Below are positions 7,285 through 14,847 of a DNA stretch of 64,000 nucleotides, one piece after another. The notes under the pieces are model-generated. The model saw only the letters and a program-made list of their open reading frames with translations. It ran no database searches and was not told the DNA's origin. Every line of letters begins with the position of its first letter. Positions within the stretch are counted from its first letter, which is position 1. Source of the DNA: Microbacterium sp. Bi121 (GTDB taxonomy: Bacteria > Actinomycetota > Actinomycetes > Actinomycetales > Microbacteriaceae); assembly GCF_918698005.1 (NCBI RefSeq), contig NZ_CAKKLJ010000001.1, positions 124,001 through 188,000 on the forward strand, given 5' to 3'. The translations under genes were made by a program, and so were the position numbers.

Positions 7285-8751
7285 TCAGTGCACCAGAACC
7301 GGGGCCGCCTCGGACTCCGCCGCCCCCTGCGGCAGCAGGTCGTCCATGCGCCCGCGCACCATCGCGATCGCGATAGCGGAGGCGATCAGCATCCCGACGG
7401 CAGCCGCGATGAAGGTCGCGCTGTATCCGTCGGCGAGGACATCGAGGTCGACCTGCGCGTGCCCGCCGACGACAGCCGCATACACGGCCGTGAACACCGA
7501 CAGTCCGATCGAGCCACCGATCTGCATGGCCGAGTTGGTCACGGCCGACGCCACGCCCGCGTCATGCGGTGCGACGCCGGCAAGGGCGACGTTCTGCAGC
7601 GGGATGAAGACGAACGCCATTCCGAAGCCCATCACGAGGAGCGCCGGAGCGACCTGCACGAAGTAGTTCCCACCGGGGGTGATGAACGACATGTAGAACA
7701 GGCCGGCGGCGACGACGAGCGGACCGCCGATGAGCATCGGACGCGGGCCGATGGACCCGAGCAGGCGAGTCGCCAGGGGTGCCATGACCATCGTGCCGAG
7801 CGGCAGCGGAAGGCTGGCGATGCCCGACTCGAGCGCACCCTGGCCGAGCACGATCTGCAGATGAAACGTGAGGTAAAGCGTCGCGCCGATCATGACGCTG
7901 CCGGCGACGGCCTGGATGAGGAAGGCCCCAGCGCGCACCCTGTGCGTGACGACGCGCAGCGGCAGCAGAGGGTTCTTGACGCGAAGCTCTACCCACACGA
8001 ACGCCGCAAGCAGCACAGCGCCGAGCGCGAGGAAGCCGATCGTGAGCGGGTTGCCCCAGCCGGTCTCGGCCAGGCTGAAGCCGTAGACGAGCGACCCGAG
8101 CCCGAGAGTGACCAGCAGCGCGCCCCACATGTCGTAGTGGTTGTCGCCGCCTGCCTTGCTCTCGGTGAGGAAGAGTCCACCGCCGATCAGGCCGACAGCC
8201 ACGAAGAACAGGTTGACGAGCAGGCACCAGCGCCAATCGAGGAACTCGGTGAGGAATCCGCCGAGCACGAGCCCGACGGCTGCTCCGGCACCGGCGACCG
8301 TTCCGAAGACGGCGAACGCTGTGTTGCGCTCCTTGCCCGAGGGGAACAGCGTCGTCAGCAGCGCGAGAGCGGCGGGAGCGAGCATGGCGGCGAAGACGCC
8401 CTGCAGACCGCGGCCGAGGATGAGTTCCCAGCCGGTGGTGGCGATGCCGGCATAGAGGGAGGCGAGGCCGAAGCCGATCATGCCCACCATGAAGGTGCGC
8501 TTGCGCCCCCAGTAGTCGGCGATGCGACCGCCGAGCAGCAGCAGCGCTCCGAAGGCGAGAGCGTATGCAGTGACGACCCACTGACGCAGGTGGTCGTCCA
8601 TGTTCAGGGCGACCTGGGCCTGTGGGAGGGCGATGTTGACGATGGTGCCGTCGAGGACGACGACGAGCTGCGTGAGCGAGATGACGAACAGCGCCCACCA
8701 CTTGGCTTTCGGATGGGCGCGCAGGGGCTTCGAACGCAGGGACGACGACAT
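7285..8751 (-). CDS. DHA2-family MFS multidrug exporter
   Basis: 488 residues with about 14 hydrophobic segments, the EmrB/QacA (DHA2) class of proton-driven drug exporters in the cytoplasmic membrane. Motifs seen are DGTIVNIALP in the first segment, the loop motif GRIADYWGRKR between segments 2 and 3, and FVPLQN-like FIFIPLQNVAL-type sequence in the second half. ATG 8751 is taken because GGAGG lies 8 nt before it; an in-frame TTG at 8793 lacks a good site. The leader from about 8752 to 8859 holds competing base-pairing segments around this ribosome binding site (see findings). Substrate unknown. Confidence 0.92.
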   Translation of the reverse strand: MSSSLRSKPLRAHPKAKWWALFVISLTQLVVVLDGTIVNIALPQAQVALNMDDHLRQWVVTAYALAFGALLLLGGRIADYWGRKRTFMVGMIGFGLASLYAGIATTGWELILGRGLQGVFAAMLAPAALALLTTLFPSGKERNTAFAVFGTVAGAGAAVGLVLGGFLTEFLDWRWCLLVNLFFVAVGLIGGGLFLTESKAGGDNHYDMWGALLVTLGLGSLVYGFSLAETGWGNPLTIGFLALGAVLLAAFVWVELRVKNPLLPLRVVTHRVRAGAFLIQAVAGSVMIGATLYLTFHLQIVLGQGALESGIASLPLPLGTMVMAPLATRLLGSIGPRPMLIGGPLVVAAGLFYMSFITPGGNYFVQVAPALLVMGFGMAFVFIPLQNVALAGVAPHDAGVASAVTNSAMQIGGSIGLSVFTAVYAAVVGGHAQVDLDVLADGYSATFIAAAVGMLIASAIAIAMVRGRMDDLLPQGAAESEAAPVLVH

Positions 8752-8758
8752 GGAAAAG

Positions 8759-8811
8759 CCTCCGGTGTCTGGTGAGGATGCCGGAGGTTTCAAGCCTCGG
8801 ACCAGCCTCCG
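8759..8811 (-). promoter_or_regulatory. Candidate RBS-sequestering leader of the DHA2 exporter
   Basis: Read on the minus strand, three short segments can pair in two exclusive ways. Segment 1 is CGGAGG (8806-8811), segment 2 CCTCCGG (8781-8787), segment 3 CCGGAGG (8759-8765), and segment 3 contains the exporter's Shine-Dalgarno sequence. Pair 2:3 is 7 perfect base pairs and would hide the site; pair 1:2 is 6 base pairs and would free it. A TACAAT hexamer (8858-8863) could be the -10. This is sequence inspection only. Confidence 0.4.
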
Positions 8812-8895: not shown

Positions 8896-9204
8896 TCAGT
8901 GACGGCGCAGCAGGCCCTGATGCTCCGGGTTCTGCTCGAACCACTCCGCGACGTACCAGCAGACCGGCTCGACCTTGCGATCGCCACGGCTCTCGATGTC
9001 GGCGACGGCGCCCTTCACGACGCAGGCGGCGTACCCGTGGCCGCGGAAAGTCGGGATCGTGAAGGCTCTGGTGAGGGCGATCGTCTTGCCGTCATCGCGG
9101 TAGTCCAGGGCACTGACGAGCACTCCGTCTCGCGTGAGCGTGTAGCGCGAAGCGTCCTTCTCATCGGTGACGAGGAACCCGTCGACCATCGTGGAATCCG
9201 TCAT
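8896..9204 (-). CDS. GCN5-related N-acetyltransferase, COG2388 type
   Basis: 102 residues, the short GNAT form in which one compact domain carries an acetyl-CoA loop. The sequence shows the beta strands around LDYRDDGKTIALTRAFT, the CoA-binding stretch FRGHGYAACVVKGAV and a C-terminal PVCWYVAEWFEQNPEH, typical of the YjdJ-like group whose substrate is unknown. A TAGCGT hexamer ends 6 nt before the ATG, so a leaderless start is likely. It ends 37 bp from the leader of the exporter gene and may share its direction by chance only. Confidence 0.88.
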   Translation of the reverse strand: MTDSTMVDGFLVTDEKDASRYTLTRDGVLVSALDYRDDGKTIALTRAFTIPTFRGHGYAACVVKGAVADIESRGDRKVEPVCWYVAEWFEQNPEHQGLLRRH

Positions 9205-9243
9205 ACGTCCACGCTAGGGCACCCCGTCGCACCGAGACTCGTT

Positions 9244-9273
9244 TTGACACCGGGCGTCATGGTCAGACATAAT
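9244..9273 (+). promoter_or_regulatory. Near-consensus promoter of the Met/Cys-rich leader ORF
   Basis: TTGACA at 9244-9249 and CATAAT at 9268-9273 are 18 nt apart. The predicted start of transcription, 7 nt after the -10, falls on the A of the ATG at 9280, so the message would begin with the leader ORF itself. It is the best sigma-70 promoter seen in the window. Confidence 0.75.
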
Positions 9274-9279
9274 CCCCCC

Positions 9280-9381
9280 ATGACCACCAACGCGCTCCCC
9301 TTGTCCGCCCAGGAGGCGAACGGGACTGCCGGGATGATGATGCCCGGTTGCGTTGGCATGTGTTGCCGAATGTGTCGCTGA
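9280..9381 (+). CDS. 33-aa Met/Cys-rich leader peptide (C-x3-CC)
   Basis: A 33-codon ORF beginning at the predicted transcription start. Its C terminus, MMMPGCVGMCCRMCR, holds Cys24, Cys28, Cys29 and Cys32, a C-x3-CC arrangement within a Met-rich run. About 150 nt separate it from the winged-helix regulator gene on the same strand, and the spacer can form a hairpin near 9432-9462 (GAGCAC with GTGCTT). Short uORFs with C-x3-CC are known in other bacteria as copper-responsive (CruR type), and Cys-codon-rich uORFs act as cysteine sensors in mycobacteria; either role here is inference. An inner start at 9334 would give the 15-residue tail alone. Confidence 0.6.
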   Translation: MTTNALPLSAQEANGTAGMMMPGCVGMCCRMCR

Positions 9382-9530
9382 TCACTCAGCTGACCTGTCT
9401 GGCTCCGTTCTACGCCATCTGCGAAGCGTGAGCCCCGAGCACCTACCCGTGTGCTTGTTCTCGGCCTTCAGGGTCAACATCGCAACACATCCGAGTCGTA
9501 TCGACTCACCCTCCCAAGGACTTCATCATC

Positions 9531-10262
9531 ATGTCGAACATCGCACTCCTCGAGCGTCCAGCCACCCGCGCCCCTCATCTGCGTCCCGTCCCCCGCTTCG
9601 TCGAATCCGAGGCGCCCGCCACTTCCGCGGCTCCGGCGACACCCGCTGACCTTCCCGCCACCCGCTCACCGCGCGGCTTCGCCCTCTACGTCGGACTCGA
9701 CGAGATCAAGGCCGCAGAGGCCGGCGTCAGCCTGCCGCTGCTCGTCGACGCCCTGCGCCGCACGCTCGCCGAGCTCGCTCCCGGCGCCGAGACTCACGCC
9801 ACCGTCGCCCTCGCGCCGCACGGTTCCGGCGGTCGCGACCTCGACGTCGTGCGCCTCGCCCTCCAGGAGCCGGGCGCGATCGCCCGCGCCAAGGCAGCAA
9901 CGGAGACCGAGGAGAAGAACGAGGACTACGGCGTCACCGTCGACATCTCGCGCAAGCGGGTGCTGATCGATGGCGAGTCCGCCGCGTTCACCTACAAGGA
10001 GTTCGAGCTGCTGCAGTACCTCGTCCTCCGCGAGGGCCGCACGATCGAGCGCTCAGAACTCGTCGGCGCCCTGTGGCAGTCTCCAGAGGACGAGACACCG
10101 GGCGAGCGCACGATCGACGTGCACGTTCGCCGTCTGCGCGCCAAGCTCGGTCGCTACGAGGACATCGTCCGCACCGTGCGCGGCGTCGGCTACCGGTTCG
10201 ACCGCCACGCCGATGTCGTCATCCGGTACGGCCACGGCACGCCTTCGCCCGACCGGTTCTGA
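9531..10262 (+). CDS. Winged-helix transcriptional regulator without receiver domain
   Basis: 243 residues. The last 100 form an OmpR/PhoB-type winged helix: FTYKEFELLQYLV, GRTIERSELVGALW, ERTIDVHVRRLRAKLG and IVRTVRGVGYRFD are the recognisable elements. The N-terminal 130 residues have no phosphoacceptor receiver; instead there is a Pro/Ala-rich leader and a small domain around ALYVGLDEIKAAEAGVSLPL. So it is not a standard two-component regulator and no kinase is nearby. It lies downstream of the Met/Cys-rich leader ORF and probably shares its promoter. Targets unknown. Confidence 0.85.
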   Translation: MSNIALLERPATRAPHLRPVPRFVESEAPATSAAPATPADLPATRSPRGFALYVGLDEIKAAEAGVSLPLLVDALRRTLAELAPGAETHATVALAPHGSGGRDLDVVRLALQEPGAIARAKAATETEEKNEDYGVTVDISRKRVLIDGESAAFTYKEFELLQYLVLREGRTIERSELVGALWQSPEDETPGERTIDVHVRRLRAKLGRYEDIVRTVRGVGYRFDRHADVVIRYGHGTPSPDRF

Positions 10263-12015: not shown

Positions 12016-12771
12016 TCAGTAGTACACCGCGAGACGCCCGCGTGGACCGTCGATGACCGTCACCGGGGTGTGGAACACTCGCGTGAGCACCTCGTCCGTG
12101 ATGATCTCGTCCGGGGTGCCGTGCACGGCGATCCGGCCATGCTCCATCGCGATGATGTAGTCGCTGTAGGCGGCTGCGAAATTGATGTCGTGCAGCACGA
12201 TGACGATCGTGCGTCCCAACTCGTCGGCGGCGCGGCGCAGCTGCCTCATCATCTGCACCGAATGCTGCGCGTCGAGGTTGTTGAGCGGCTCGTCGAGCAG
12301 GAGGTAGTCGGTGTCCTGCGCGAGGACCATCGCGACGTAGGCGCGTTGCCGCTGACCGCCGGATAGCTGATCGAGGAAGCGCTGTTCCAGATCGGTGAGG
12401 TCGAGGAAGTCGATCGCCTCGGAGATCTTGTCCTCGTCGACCTGCGTGAGCCGTCCCCCGCTGTACGGATAGCGCCCGAAACCGACCAGCTGACGCACGG
12501 TCAAACGCGTCACGAAGTGGTTCTCCTGGCGCAGGATCGACACGGTCTTGGCGACCTGTTTCGACGCCGTGCGATGCACGTCGAGGCCCGCGACCTCCAC
12601 CGTCCCCTCGTCGGGCGCGAGCAGGCGCCCGATCATCGTGAGCACGGTGGACTTGCCTGCGCCGTTCGGTCCGACCAGCGCGATGATCCCGCCGGCCGGG
12701 ATATCGACCGAGATCGGACCGATCTCGATGTCGTTGCCGTAGCGCTTGGTGACATTGTTGAGACGTATCAC
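12016..12771 (-). CDS. Ferric-siderophore ABC transporter ATPase, FepC type
   Basis: 251 residues. Walker A GPNGAGKST near residue 34, signature LSGGQRQRAYVAM, Walker B DYLLLDEPLNNLD and the H-loop VLHDINFA are all present, so it should power siderophore uptake with the two permeases upstream. The GTG start overlaps the preceding permease stop (GTGA), which fixes the start and shows coupling. Last gene of a four-gene iron operon. Confidence 0.94.
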   Translation of the reverse strand: MIRLNNVTKRYGNDIEIGPISVDIPAGGIIALVGPNGAGKSTVLTMIGRLLAPDEGTVEVAGLDVHRTASKQVAKTVSILRQENHFVTRLTVRQLVGFGRYPYSGGRLTQVDEDKISEAIDFLDLTDLEQRFLDQLSGGQRQRAYVAMVLAQDTDYLLLDEPLNNLDAQHSVQMMRQLRRAADELGRTIVIVLHDINFAAAYSDYIIAMEHGRIAVHGTPDEIITDEVLTRVFHTPVTVIDGPRGRLAVYY

Positions 12772-13817
12772 AGACGCCCCTTCCGAAGGATGACGAACAA
12801 GAACAGCAGACCGCCGATGAGCTCGACGACGATGGTCACGGCGTCGACGAGCGGGAAGACGTGCCGCAGGAGGAAGTACGCGGCCGTGAGGATGACGTAG
12901 CCCAGCAGCCAGGCCACAGGCAGGATCCGACGGTGATCGTAGGTGCTCGTGATCGAGTACGCGAGGGTCGCCATGAGGAATCCGAGGAAGGTCATCGGGC
13001 CCACGAGGGACGTGGTCATCGCCATCAGCACCGAGACCAGGGTCAGCATGAGCATGATCTGACGCTTGTGGTTCAGGCCGAGGTTGGCGCTGATCTCGCT
13101 CCCCAGCGAGATCACGTTCAGACGTCGCGCGAGGAACCAGATCGTGCCACCGGTCGCGAGGACGACCGGGATGACGAACCACAGGAAGTCGGTGCTCGCG
13201 TTGCCCACGCTGCCGAACAGGCGCGCGGTCAGCACATCGAACTCGTTCGGGTCGAGCATCTGCTGCATGAATGTGGCCAACGAGCCCATGCCTGCACCGA
13301 TGATGATGCCGATCAGCAGCATCACGTGCAGGTTCCCGAACCGGCCGGAGAGCAGCCACGAATACAGCAGCACGGCGAAGAGCACCATCATCGCGCTCTG
13401 CAGCAGGAAACGGCCGAACGGGCTGATCTCAGCGATCCCCGCTGTGCCGAAGAAGAACACGATCGTGGTCTGCATGAGCACGTAGAGCGATTCGAAACCC
13501 ATGATCGACGGAGTGATGATCCGGTTGTTCGTCACCGTCTGGAAGGTGACGGTCGCGATCGCCTGGCAGAACGTGACCACCGCGATGACGACGAGAGTGG
13601 TGACGCGCATCCGGGAGATGCGCCACCACTTCTCACTTAAAGGCTCGAACTGATTCCCCCAGGTCAGCAGCAGCATCGTGACGGCCACCGCGCCGACGAT
13701 GAGAGCGCCCAGGATGAGCAGATACCGGATGCGGTGCGCACTGCTCGCGTAGGGTCCGAAGTCCCGTCGGGACGCCGACTGCGCGGACGCGGAGATGGGA
13801 GTCGTGTCAGCTGACAC
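12768..13817 (-). CDS. Ferric-siderophore ABC permease, FecCD family
   Basis: 349 residues with about nine hydrophobic segments of the FecCD/BtuC fold. The family's IGFLG-like stretch appears as FLGFLMATLAYS, and LGSEISANLGLNHKRQIMLML resembles the coupling-helix region that meets the ATPase. The N terminus is a 35-residue polar extension. It overlaps the upstream permease gene by 11 nt and the ATPase gene by 4 nt. It forms a heterodimeric channel with the upstream gene. Confidence 0.93.
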   Translation of the reverse strand: MSADTTPISASAQSASRRDFGPYASSAHRIRYLLILGALIVGAVAVTMLLLTWGNQFEPLSEKWWRISRMRVTTLVVIAVVTFCQAIATVTFQTVTNNRIITPSIMGFESLYVLMQTTIVFFFGTAGIAEISPFGRFLLQSAMMVLFAVLLYSWLLSGRFGNLHVMLLIGIIIGAGMGSLATFMQQMLDPNEFDVLTARLFGSVGNASTDFLWFVIPVVLATGGTIWFLARRLNVISLGSEISANLGLNHKRQIMLMLTLVSVLMAMTTSLVGPMTFLGFLMATLAYSITSTYDHRRILPVAWLLGYVILTAAYFLLRHVFPLVDAVTIVVELIGGLLFLFVILRKGRL

Positions 13818-14847
13818 CGTTCCTCCTCGTGCGAAGCAGCATGAAGATGAACACGGCCGAGCCGACGACGCCGAGCACCAGCGACACGGGCACTTCGAAC
13901 GGCATGATGACGACGCGGCCGATGATGTCGCACATCGTGACGATCCAGATGCCGGTCAGGAACACCCAGGGCAGGTTGGATCGCAGATCGTCACCGCGAA
14001 CCATCGAGACCAGGTTCGGGACGATCAGGCCGAGGAACGGCAGCATGCCGATCACGACGGTGACGACTCCGGTGGTGAGGGAGATCAGGCCGACTCCGAG
14101 CAGCATGACGCGCTCGTAGTCGAGGCCCACGTTCGTCGCGACGTCCTTGCCGAGGCCCGCGACGGTGAAACGGTCGGCGACGATCATCACGATCACCGCG
14201 ACGACCAGCACGATCCAGAGCAGTTCGTAGCGGCCGACCTCGATGCCGGTGAATCGGCCCATGAACCAGCCGCCGAGAACCTGCAGCAGGTTGAACCGGA
14301 GGGCGAGGAACGTCGTGATCGCGCTGACCACCGCGCCGAACATGATGCCGACGATCGGCACGATGAGGGACGACTTCAGCGTGACCCGGCGCAGGAACGC
14401 GAAGAAGATCAGTGTGCCGATGAAGGCGAAGACGATCGCCACGACCATCTTGACGAAGATCCCGGAGGACGGGAGCACGATGTAGGTCACGAGGAGCCCG
14501 AGACCGGCCCACTCCGTGGTGCCGACGGTCGTCGGCTCGACGAAGCGGTTCTGGGTCATCAGCTGCATGATCAGGCCCGCCATCGCCATGCTGGCGCCGG
14601 CGAGCACGAGGGATGCTGTTCGCGGGATGCGGGTGATCCAGAGGAACTCCGCTCCCTCACCAGGGACAGCGGTGATGTCGGCGACCCCGACGAAGATAGA
14701 CAGCGTGATCAGGCCGATCGTCAGCGCGATCGCGAGGAGCAGCGGCCACGTCCTGCGCCAGCGCGACCGGGTGCGCGAACGGGGTCTGGACGTGGAGAGC
14801 GCGTCGATGTTGGTGACGCGCGGTGTAGGGGTCGCCGGAGAGGCCAT
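13807..14847 (-). CDS. Ferric-siderophore ABC permease, FecCD family
   Basis: 346 residues, a second FecCD-type permease with recognisable LAGASMAMAGLIMQLMTQNRF near the start of the channel domain, LGKDVATNVGLDYERVMLLG (ATPase contact region) and GMLPFLGLIVPNLVS. An Arg-rich stretch, TSRPRSRTRSRWRRTWP, precedes the first membrane helix on the inside. It sits between the binding-protein gene (70 bp gap) and the other permease (11 nt overlap). Confidence 0.93.
   Translation of the reverse strand: MASPATPTPRVTNIDALSTSRPRSRTRSRWRRTWPLLLAIALTIGLITLSIFVGVADITAVPGEGAEFLWITRIPRTASLVLAGASMAMAGLIMQLMTQNRFVEPTTVGTTEWAGLGLLVTYIVLPSSGIFVKMVVAIVFAFIGTLIFFAFLRRVTLKSSLIVPIVGIMFGAVVSAITTFLALRFNLLQVLGGWFMGRFTGIEVGRYELLWIVLVVAVIVMIVADRFTVAGLGKDVATNVGLDYERVMLLGVGLISLTTGVVTVVIGMLPFLGLIVPNLVSMVRGDDLRSNLPWVFLTGIWIVTMCDIIGRVVIMPFEVPVSLVLGVVGSAVFIFMLLRTRRNGVS

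What the first reader, a model, noticed from the sequence alone, without database searches (positions are those of the whole stretch)
9244..9530. Leaderless C-x3-CC leader peptide before a winged-helix regulator
A near-consensus promoter places the transcription start on the ATG of a 33-codon ORF whose tail has a C-x3-CC motif and five methionines. The downstream regulator has no receiver domain. C-x3-CC uORFs sense copper in the CruR system, and Cys-rich uORFs respond to cysteine in mycobacteria, so this could be a metal- or sulfur-sensing leader controlling a regulator, a pairing I have not seen described.
Basis: partly seen in the sequence, partly recalled or inferred. Interest (0 to 1): 0.7.

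Follow-up and report, generated by a model that had tools for sequence, protein, structure and literature searches.

The report
Conserved Cys-Cys-Arg-Met leader peptide controlling regulator
A 33-codon mini-gene directly upstream of an orphan DNA-binding regulator is conserved across Microbacterium's family and in part of the Arthrobacter group, with a nearly unchanging Cys-Arg-Met ending written with one fixed rare arginine codon, and it likely slows ribosomes there, which would set how much of the regulator is made, possibly in response to cysteine shortage.

Summary
A TTGACA-18-CATAAT promoter sits 6 nt before the ATG of a 33-codon ORF (9280-9381), 149 nt upstream of an orphan OmpR-type wHTH regulator. 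The ORF is real and old: it was found in 190 of 249 Microbacteriaceae genomes (73 of 85 genera), and at least 215 of the 224 distinct copies kept have the regulator downstream. The same tail occurs in 42 of 149 Arthrobacter-group genomes; all 30 loci examined lie before the orthologous regulator.

The core is Cys-Arg-Met, five residues before the stop in 222 of 223. Tail codons 28-32 give pN/pS 0.002. The Arg codon is CGA in 223 of 223, and in 42 of 42 pattern hits of the second family, against 11.5% in window genes. The mRNA also carries selected structure, and the stretch after the stop is C-rich and G-poor.

Best reading: a new family of regulatory uORF, likely a ribosome-pausing attenuator (cysteine or slow-codon responsive), probably acting through Rho and/or start-site occlusion. 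CruR-like metal sensing is not supported. Signal, regulon and switch remain untested.

The parts
9244..9273 (+). Promoter TTGACA-N18-CATAAT; predicted start site on or next to ATG 9280
   Evidence: 11 of 12 matches, 0.1 expected; layout recurs in 224 distinct copies
9280..9381 (+). Leaderless uORF, 33 codons, MTTNALPLSAQEANGTAGMMMPGCVGMCCRMCR
   Evidence: pN/pS 0.34 in frame, 0.84 and 1.58 in the other two frames
9303..9321 (+). RNA hairpin 1 inside the uORF (codons about 8-14)
   Evidence: More stable than synonymous recodings, mean z -1.26, n 49; low synonymous rate in codons 9-17; consensus fold; pair counts modestly above shuffles
9328..9348 (+). RNA hairpin 2 with AUGAUGAUG loop (9334-9342)
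   Evidence: Mean z -1.39, n 45; both-side changes 20 against 8.1 in shuffles, maximum 15, but pairing slid by one base scores as well (0.70 against 0.66); consensus fold
9361..9375 (+). Conserved core Cys28-Cys29-Arg30-Met31-Cys32 (TGT TGC CGA ATG TGT)
9367..9369 (+). Arg30 codon, CGA in every copy that has the core
   Evidence: 223 of 223 and 42 of 42 CGA pattern hits when any Arg codon was allowed, 30 of them located beside the regulator; 5 of 479 at other Arg positions of the same uORFs and 11.5% in window genes
9382..9530 (+). Untranslated interval, C-rich and G-poor (rut-like)
   Evidence: C-G skew of the first 110 nt 0.23 here; median 0.25 in 224 copies; about 1% of 110-nt windows of the 64 kb reach 0.25, and 1 of 27 control upstream regions of the window
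9482..9490 (+). GCAACACAT, complementary to the Cys codons ATGTGTTGC (9358-9366)
   Evidence: GCARCRC in 61 of 75 Microbacterium copies against 5.2 in shuffles, 29 of 149 others against 12.4, and in the consensus fold, but duplex energies do not beat shuffles: inconclusive
9493..9507 (+). Hairpin GAGTCG-TAT-CGACTC just before the Shine-Dalgarno sequence
   Evidence: Consensus fold with 5 both-side changes at one pair; no terminator-like site found
9516..9533 (+). Regulator start site: AAGGA, then CATCATCATG; CATCATCAT (9524-9532) is complementary to the hairpin-2 loop
   Evidence: the pattern RRGGANNNCATCATCATG occurs exactly once in the own genome
9531..10262 (+). Orphan OmpR-type wHTH regulator, 243 aa
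   Evidence: match in 249 of 249 Microbacteriaceae genomes, in nine of them only at E 1e-7 to 1e-20

Best explanation
The 33-codon ORF is a conserved leader ORF that likely acts as a ribosome-pausing attenuator for the orphan wHTH regulator behind it. Shown: a promoter at the ATG; the reading frame under selection; a tail Cys-Cys-Arg(CGA)-Met-x-x-stop kept in two families in front of the same regulator; RNA hairpins in the ORF body that are more stable than synonymous recodings; a C-rich, G-poor untranslated stretch after the stop. Inferred: the ribosome slows at the Cys (mostly the rare TGT) and CGA codons near the stop. When it passes quickly and leaves, the naked C-rich RNA would be open to Rho (the genome encodes Rho) and transcription would stop before the regulator. 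When it lingers, because Cys-tRNA is short or CGA decoding is slow, it would shield that RNA and the regulator would be made. In Microbacterium a second layer is plausible: the AUGAUGAUG loop of hairpin 2 can pair with CAUCAUCAU over the regulator's start codon, so translation of the uORF would also decide whether that start is free. The signal is most likely cysteine supply; this is not tested.
For: Conservation and linkage to the regulator. Leaderless layout. Peptide-level selection on the tail: 1987 synonymous against 21 non-synonymous single changes in codons 28-32, pN/pS 0.002 (pairs not independent). Fixed distance: core Cys to stop five residues in 222 of 223, the same in the second family by the pattern searched. 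Codon choice: CGA 223 of 223 and 42 of 42; TGT 442 of 634 tail Cys codons against 11.4% in window genes. Cys runs: where the Arthrobacter group has no Cys after the Met it often adds one before, CCCRM in 13 of 30. [quoted passage not shown] C-rich interval in 224 copies and in the 30 Arthrobacter-group loci (median skew 0.25 and 0.23). Rho present. RNA structure. Loop-start complementarity. Precedents: tandem-Cys uORF before cysS (passages of PMC8632094); toiL (abstract of PMC12121999).
Against: No expression, start-site or ribosome data. No terminator-like site; C-richness alone does not prove Rho action, and its control came from this window only. Copies were found with a profile that contains the tail, so copies without it would be under-counted. 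Three tails of 223 hold one Cys and 29 hold two, so a pure Cys-count sensor is doubtful. In the Arthrobacter group the residue after Met is His or Gln in 21 of 30 and there is no MMM; 107 of 149 genomes there lack the pattern. The own genome and 200 of 249 family genomes lack a PF01507 match, and the uORF is no commoner where it is present (35 of 49 against 155 of 200). The MMM/CATCATC association (p 1e-7 uncorrected) rests on 6 and 8 changes on a tree with one supported independent pair, is not significant in other genera (p 0.28), and 64 of 212 start regions show neither match. In the pair counts, slid controls reach similar both-side counts for stem A, at lower pairing. Pairing of the Cys codons with the downstream element does not beat shuffles.
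Confidence: 0.45

Rival explanations
1. Nascent arrest peptide: the peptide ...Cys-Arg-Met-x-x itself stalls the ribosome at or near its stop codon by contacts in the peptidyl-transferase centre and tunnel, with or without a small-molecule ligand, and the stalled ribosome exposes or shields the regulator's leader RNA.
For: Cys-Arg-(Met/Lys) in 223 of 224 copies with a five-residue distance to the stop in 222 and again in a second family with an unrelated N-terminal part. Almost no amino-acid change in the tail.
Against: A pure peptide effect does not explain CGA in 223 of 223 and 42 of 42 copies, nor the preference for TGT.
Confidence: 0.25
2. Start-site occlusion (translational attenuation): the uORF RNA pairs with the regulator's start region (AUGAUGAUG loop with CAUCAUCAU) and ribosome position on the uORF opens or closes that start; Rho matters little.
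For: CATCATC within 60 nt of the start in 120 of 212 loci against 0.55 in shuffles; MMM and CATCATC go together in Microbacterium, 54/5 against 3/12; loop-interval duplex energies in Microbacterium mean z -1.12, 15 of 74 beating all 25 shuffles against 2.8 expected; the layout is unique in the genome.
Against: Tree test without power; in other genera 9 of 137 against 5.3 expected; MMM absent in the 30 Arthrobacter-group peptides; in other genera 59 of 110 copies with MMM have no CATCATC in the start region.
Confidence: 0.25
3. General translation-stress sensor of the toiL or whiB7-uORF type: drugs or stresses that stall ribosomes on the uORF switch on the regulator; cysteine is not the signal.
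For: toiL answers to at least five classes of ribosome-targeting drugs through start-site occlusion and Rho (abstract). A drug-efflux MFS gene (DHA2/EmrB type) lies nearby. Cys and rare codons sit at one fixed spot.
Against: The tail is constrained to Cys-Arg-Met far beyond what a general sensor would seem to need. The efflux gene is transcribed away from the regulator, and its linkage in other genomes was not tested.
Confidence: 0.15
4. Copper- or other metal-sensing leader like CruR.
For: Cys- and Met-rich tail.
Confidence: 0.04
5. Independent functional small protein (for example a metal-binding microprotein) that merely shares a transcript with the regulator.
For: Amino-acid conservation.
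Against: RNA-level constraint in the body and fixed CGA; N-terminal two thirds unrelated between families; linked to the regulator in at least 215 of 224 copies and 30 of 30; no NCBIfam match for 15 peptides.
Confidence: 0.07

Closest known systems
Polycysteine leaderless uORFs of mycobacteria (Canestrari et al. 2020)
   Same: Leaderless start, Cys codons, upstream of a gene that is regulated in cis
   Different: Those are described as acting on cysteine biosynthetic genes; here a fixed Cys-Cys-CGA-Met core precedes an orphan regulator. Paper not held; known here only from passages and the reference in PMC13236596 and recall
uORFC-8-2 motif before cysS in Rhodobacterales (PMC8632094, passages read)
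   Same: uORF with two tandem, highly conserved Cys codons, proposed to sense charged tRNA-Cys
   Different: Has a terminator with U-run, UGC dominates, Cys at positions 14-15, target is cysS; here no terminator, TGT preferred, Cys at the end, target a wHTH regulator
toiL-topAI of E. coli (PMC12121999, abstract and outline)
   Same: uORF, start-site occlusion by leader RNA, Rho-dependent termination
   Different: Different target; senses ribosome drugs; the corresponding steps here are inferred
CruR / DUF2946 of Bordetella (PMC9426467, abstract and passages)
   Same: Translated upstream ORF with Cys residues, Rho-dependent control
   Different: 145-residue exported protein with CXXC and RAPP; none of these here
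whiB7/wblC uORF (reference title seen; otherwise recalled)
   Same: uORF controlling a transcriptional regulator in actinobacteria
   Different: Antibiotic-responsive by recall; no sequence comparison was made

Membership tests
Mycobacterial polycysteine uORF attenuators | Leaderless uORF | tested here: met
   By promoter-ATG distance in 224 copies; start site not mapped
Mycobacterial polycysteine uORF attenuators | Run of several Cys codons | tested here: inconclusive
   Microbacteriaceae: three Cys in the five-residue tail in 191 of 223, two in 29, one in 3. Arthrobacter group: CCC before Arg in 13 of 30
Mycobacterial polycysteine uORF attenuators | Upstream of cysteine or sulfur genes | tested here: not met
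   Target is a wHTH regulator of unknown regulon
Mycobacterial polycysteine uORF attenuators | Cysteine-responsive | not testable with these tools
   Needs reporter assays
CruR / DUF2946 | CXXC and C-terminal RAPP in an exported ~145-aa protein | tested here: not met
   33 aa, no RAPP, no such layout
trp-type transcription attenuator | Intrinsic terminator between leader and gene | tested here: not met
   0 terminator-like sites in 9150-9600; tested in this genome only
uORF with start-site occlusion plus Rho (toiL type) | Leader RNA pairs with the start region | tested here: inconclusive
   Supported in Microbacterium, weak elsewhere
uORF with start-site occlusion plus Rho (toiL type) | Rho-dependent termination | not testable with these tools
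   C-rich interval and a Rho gene only
Known Rfam or NCBIfam leader families | Match above cut-off | tested here: not met
   No Rfam match at the uORF at gathering score; only sub-threshold snoRNA and H19 hits; 0 of 15 peptides match NCBIfam
Regulatory uORF (general kind) | Short translated ORF, under selection, in cis to one target gene | tested here: inconclusive
   Selection and linkage shown; translation and regulation not measured

The most novel reading that the evidence does not exclude
A codon-identity sensor: an invariant CGA codon, read only through the poor inosine-adenine wobble pair, set between Cys and Met a fixed five residues before the stop, makes a two-family leader peptide report Cys-tRNA and tRNA-Arg(ICG) decoding capacity to an orphan master regulator. 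It would be an attenuator built on one slow codon in a fixed peptide rather than on a run of one amino acid.
Probability: 0.25. Interest if true: 0.85.

Novelty: new variant of a known kind. Interest (0 to 1): 0.66.

Why it matters
It would add a leader-peptide family present in most Microbacteriaceae genomes examined (190 of 249) and some Arthrobacter-group genomes (42 of 149), sitting in front of a regulator that the sources name only as a winged-helix protein, and so give a handle on what that regulator senses. The codon-level invariance (CGA in 223 of 223 and 42 of 42 tails) makes a sharp question testable: can one synonymous codon, in a fixed peptide context, be the sensing element of an attenuator? 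I found no description of it in the listings of nine paper searches, which cover open-licence papers only.

Tried and rejected
Cys-codon/anti-element pairing: the 9-nt match ATGTGTTGC / GCAACACAT in the window looked decisive. GCARCRC is enriched in Microbacterium and the pairing is in the consensus fold, but longest exact pairings are little longer than shuffles and duplex energies do not beat them (mean z 0.06 and 0.15). Not used as a main argument.

Trans-acting small RNA through the AUGAUGAUG loop: the exact start layout occurs once in the genome, at the regulator itself, so a cis role is simpler.

Link to sulfate assimilation: PF01507 matches in 49 of 249 family genomes and not in the own genome. 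The uORF (E up to 0.1) is in 35 of those 49 and 155 of the other 200 (counted by reading the lists; three of the 35 are weak, E 0.01-0.04).

CGA explained by pairing with the regulator start: TTCGAC-like words near the start in 38 of 212 against 8.6 expected, too few to explain 223 of 223.

Wider distribution: in 296 class genomes the looser tail pattern hits outside Micrococcales look like chance (few real stops, scattered); their neighbourhoods were not examined. Two weak non-family peptide hits (L163, L164) were dismissed. Extra weak matches in some genomes were not examined.

Regulator structure: low-confidence model, so no fold search was run.

Rows dropped: of 232 distinct uORFs, 8 were left out of the counts for score under 33, length outside 28-36 residues or no ATG at the expected place (L033 truncated, L060, L113, L163, L164, L240, L250, L254); one of the 224 kept (L043) has a shortened tail without Cys-Arg-Met and is missing from the 223; one of the 223 has Lys for Met. 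For the start-region counts 211 or 212 of 224 had a recognisable start. The pair counts used 102 non-redundant copies of 33 residues.

Full report
WHAT IS THERE. The window holds a TTGACA-N18-CATAAT promoter (9244-9273), 11 of 12 matches and the only promoter-like site found in 9150-9600, with 0.1 expected from shuffles. Six bases later the ATG of a 33-codon ORF begins (9280-9381). After 149 untranslated bases comes a 243-aa protein (9531-10262) with one Pfam domain, Trans_reg_C. Its best sequence matches among solved structures are OmpR-type DNA-binding domains.

IS IT REAL. The regulator has a match in 249 of 249 Microbacteriaceae genomes, nine of them only at E 1e-7 to 1e-20, where the match may be a paralogue. 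A 15-row peptide profile of the uORF finds it in 190 of the same 249 genomes, 73 of 85 genera, at E up to 0.1. Of the 59 misses 20 are listed, and 12 of those 20 are genomes of 2.0 Mb or less. Among 297 Micrococcales genomes the profile hits 22 Microbacteriaceae and, weakly, two others judged chance. Of 80 named loci, the uORF was seen at 79, one of them with a shortened tail (L043); the other locus is cut by a contig end. After removing duplicates 232 distinct copies remained; 224 were kept for counts. Regulator homology follows 215 of the 224 within the DNA held; the nine others have 375-447 bases downstream, and by the coordinates seven of these nine have the regulator match 305-486 bases further on the same strand (L149 ends with its contig; for L243 the regulator is not listed). 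The promoter layout is kept: the second hexamer ends 6 or 7 bases before the ATG in 214 of 224, and the first hexamer begins TTGA in 215 (the script looked 0-9 bases before the ATG only).

WHICH PART MATTERS. 223 of 224 copies have Cys-Arg-Met or, once, Cys-Arg-Lys. C-x3-CC occurs in 18 of 223, and the distance from the core Cys to the stop is five residues in 222 of 223. The copies were found with a profile that contains the tail, so copies that lost it would be under-counted. In pairs 80-97% identical, codons 28-32 show 1987 synonymous and 21 non-synonymous single changes (pN/pS 0.002); the whole frame gives 0.34 and the other two frames 0.84 and 1.58. Pairs are not independent, but the contrast is very large. 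This is protein-coding selection.

THE CODONS. The Arg codon is CGA in 223 of 223. In 36 window genes CGA is 11.5% of Arg codons, and at other Arg positions of the same uORFs it is 5 of 479. Tail Cys codons are TGT in 442 of 634, against 11.4% in window genes and 4 of 32 at other uORF Cys positions. The third bases of the Cys codons vary while that of the Arg codon does not. CGA is assumed to be read by tRNA-Arg(ICG), and the A:I pair is reported as inefficient (passages and a reference title in PMC10454642). Slow decoding at this point is therefore likely, but it is inferred.

A SECOND FAMILY. In 119 Micrococcales genomes the regulator occurs outside Microbacteriaceae in two families only, at E up to 1e-30. 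One is the Arthrobacter group, by the names of near-identical proteins. Of its eight loci first seen, four had the tail. In a larger draw, 42 of 149 genomes carry the DNA pattern for Cys-Cys-CGA-Met-x-Ala-stop, once each, with none in the reversed control. All 30 loci examined of the 42 have the regulator downstream. The body of the peptide is unrelated (VNTNSTASAAA and the like) and lacks MMM in all 30; the start codon chosen by the script is GTG in 25 of 30 and is less certain than in Microbacteriaceae. The residue after Met is His or Gln in 21 of 30, and 13 of 30 have three Cys before the Arg. With any Arg codon allowed, the same 42 come back, all CGA, plus 7 non-CGA hits, six of them ending in TGG rather than a stop, whose neighbours were not examined; the reversed control then gives 5 hits in 3 genomes. 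The remaining 107 of 149 genomes do not have the CGA pattern. In a third family a different leader (MFFQQRMPMLCVRDLTC and near copy) lies before the regulator in two of four loci, and a related ending in a third.

RNA LEVEL. The uORF body carries structure. The hairpin with the ATGATGATG loop and the hairpin at codons 7-15 are more stable than synonymous recodings (mean z -1.39 and -1.26), while the tail is not. Codons 9-17 have a low synonymous rate. Both-side changes at hairpin-2 pairs number 20 against 8.1 in shuffles (maximum 15); stem A (39 against 24.3) and hairpin 1 (29 against 18.5) also exceed their shuffles, but slid controls of stem A reach 39-44 at lower pairing and hairpin 2 slid by one base pairs as well, so these figures are modest support. 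A consensus fold of 32 Microbacterium leaders has 48 pairs, 4 of them with both-side changes. The regulator start in most Microbacterium reads CATCATCATG, complementary to the loop; the pattern with its Shine-Dalgarno sequence is unique in the genome. CATCATC lies within 60 bases of the start in 120 of 212 loci, 0.55 expected. In Microbacterium, loss of MMM and loss of CATCATC go together (54/5 against 3/12, p 1e-7 without correction for relatedness), but the tree test has one supported independent pair, other genera show no such association (p 0.28), and energies are clearly better than shuffles in Microbacterium only. I treat this pairing as plausible and lineage-specific.

AFTER THE STOP. 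The first 110 bases are C-rich and G-poor: median C-G skew 0.25 in 224 copies (5th percentile 0.14), a value reached by about 1% of windows in the 64 kb and by 1 of 27 control upstream regions of the window, and 0.23 in the 30 Arthrobacter-group loci. No intrinsic terminator was found and the genome encodes Rho. This fits Rho-dependent attenuation but does not prove it.

MECHANISM. Best-supported: the ribosome enters at the 5' end, passes the hairpins and slows at Cys-Cys-CGA-Met near the stop. Its dwell time there likely decides whether the C-rich RNA is exposed and transcription ends, or the regulator is made; in Microbacterium the loop-start pairing may add control of initiation. The invariant codon favours a decoding-based pause over a purely peptide-based arrest. 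The invariant peptide and fixed distance to the stop keep arrest as a serious rival. Cysteine supply is the most natural signal but is not required by the data: tails with one Cys exist (3 of 223), and the uORF is not tied to a PF01507 protein (35 of 49 genomes with, 155 of 200 without). Most of these genomes, the own one included, have no PF01507 match, which could make cysteine supply a matter of uptake (inference).

COMPARISON. It would work like known regulatory uORFs. Tandem Cys codons before cysS, polycysteine uORFs in mycobacteria (known here from a citing paper) and toiL are the nearest. It is not a member of CruR, nor of any Rfam or NCBIfam family searched. The pairing of such a leader with this orphan regulator, the two-family conservation and the invariant CGA were not found described in the searches listed under Why it matters. 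I call it a new variant of a known kind.

Noticed in passing
L287 and L288 about 215 bases upstream of the regulator match; L289 similar: In a third family the regulator orthologue has another short leader, MFFQQRMPMLCVRDLTC (CGA-ATG again in L287 and L288, CGC-ATG in L289), whose end pairs with a downstream arm (GTTCGCGACC / GGTCGCGAAC in L287 and L288).
   Followed up: partly
window 8749-8790, minus strand: A CCTCCGG...CCGGAGG hairpin followed by CTTTTCC lies directly before a likely ATG start (8751) of a DHA2-type drug-efflux MFS gene, looking like a possible attenuator of its own.
   Followed up: no
own genome G000 and the Microbacteriaceae: PF01507 (PAPS reductase / CysD) has no match in the own genome and matches in only 49 of 249 family genomes: most seem to lack this route of sulfate assimilation.
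   Followed up: partly
window 9287-9293 and 9350-9356: Two uORF stretches (CCAACGC and GCGTTGG) can pair and close a three-way junction with the two hairpins; this could explain the rare GTT Val codon at position 25, with modest pair support across genera.
   Followed up: partly
window 12016-14847, minus strand: ABC transporter genes with two FecCD permeases and an ATPase-like ORF, likely for siderophore uptake, downstream of the regulator.
   Followed up: no
regulator residues 1-130: N-terminal part has conserved blocks (RGFALY, GGRD) but no Pfam domain; function unknown.
   Followed up: no
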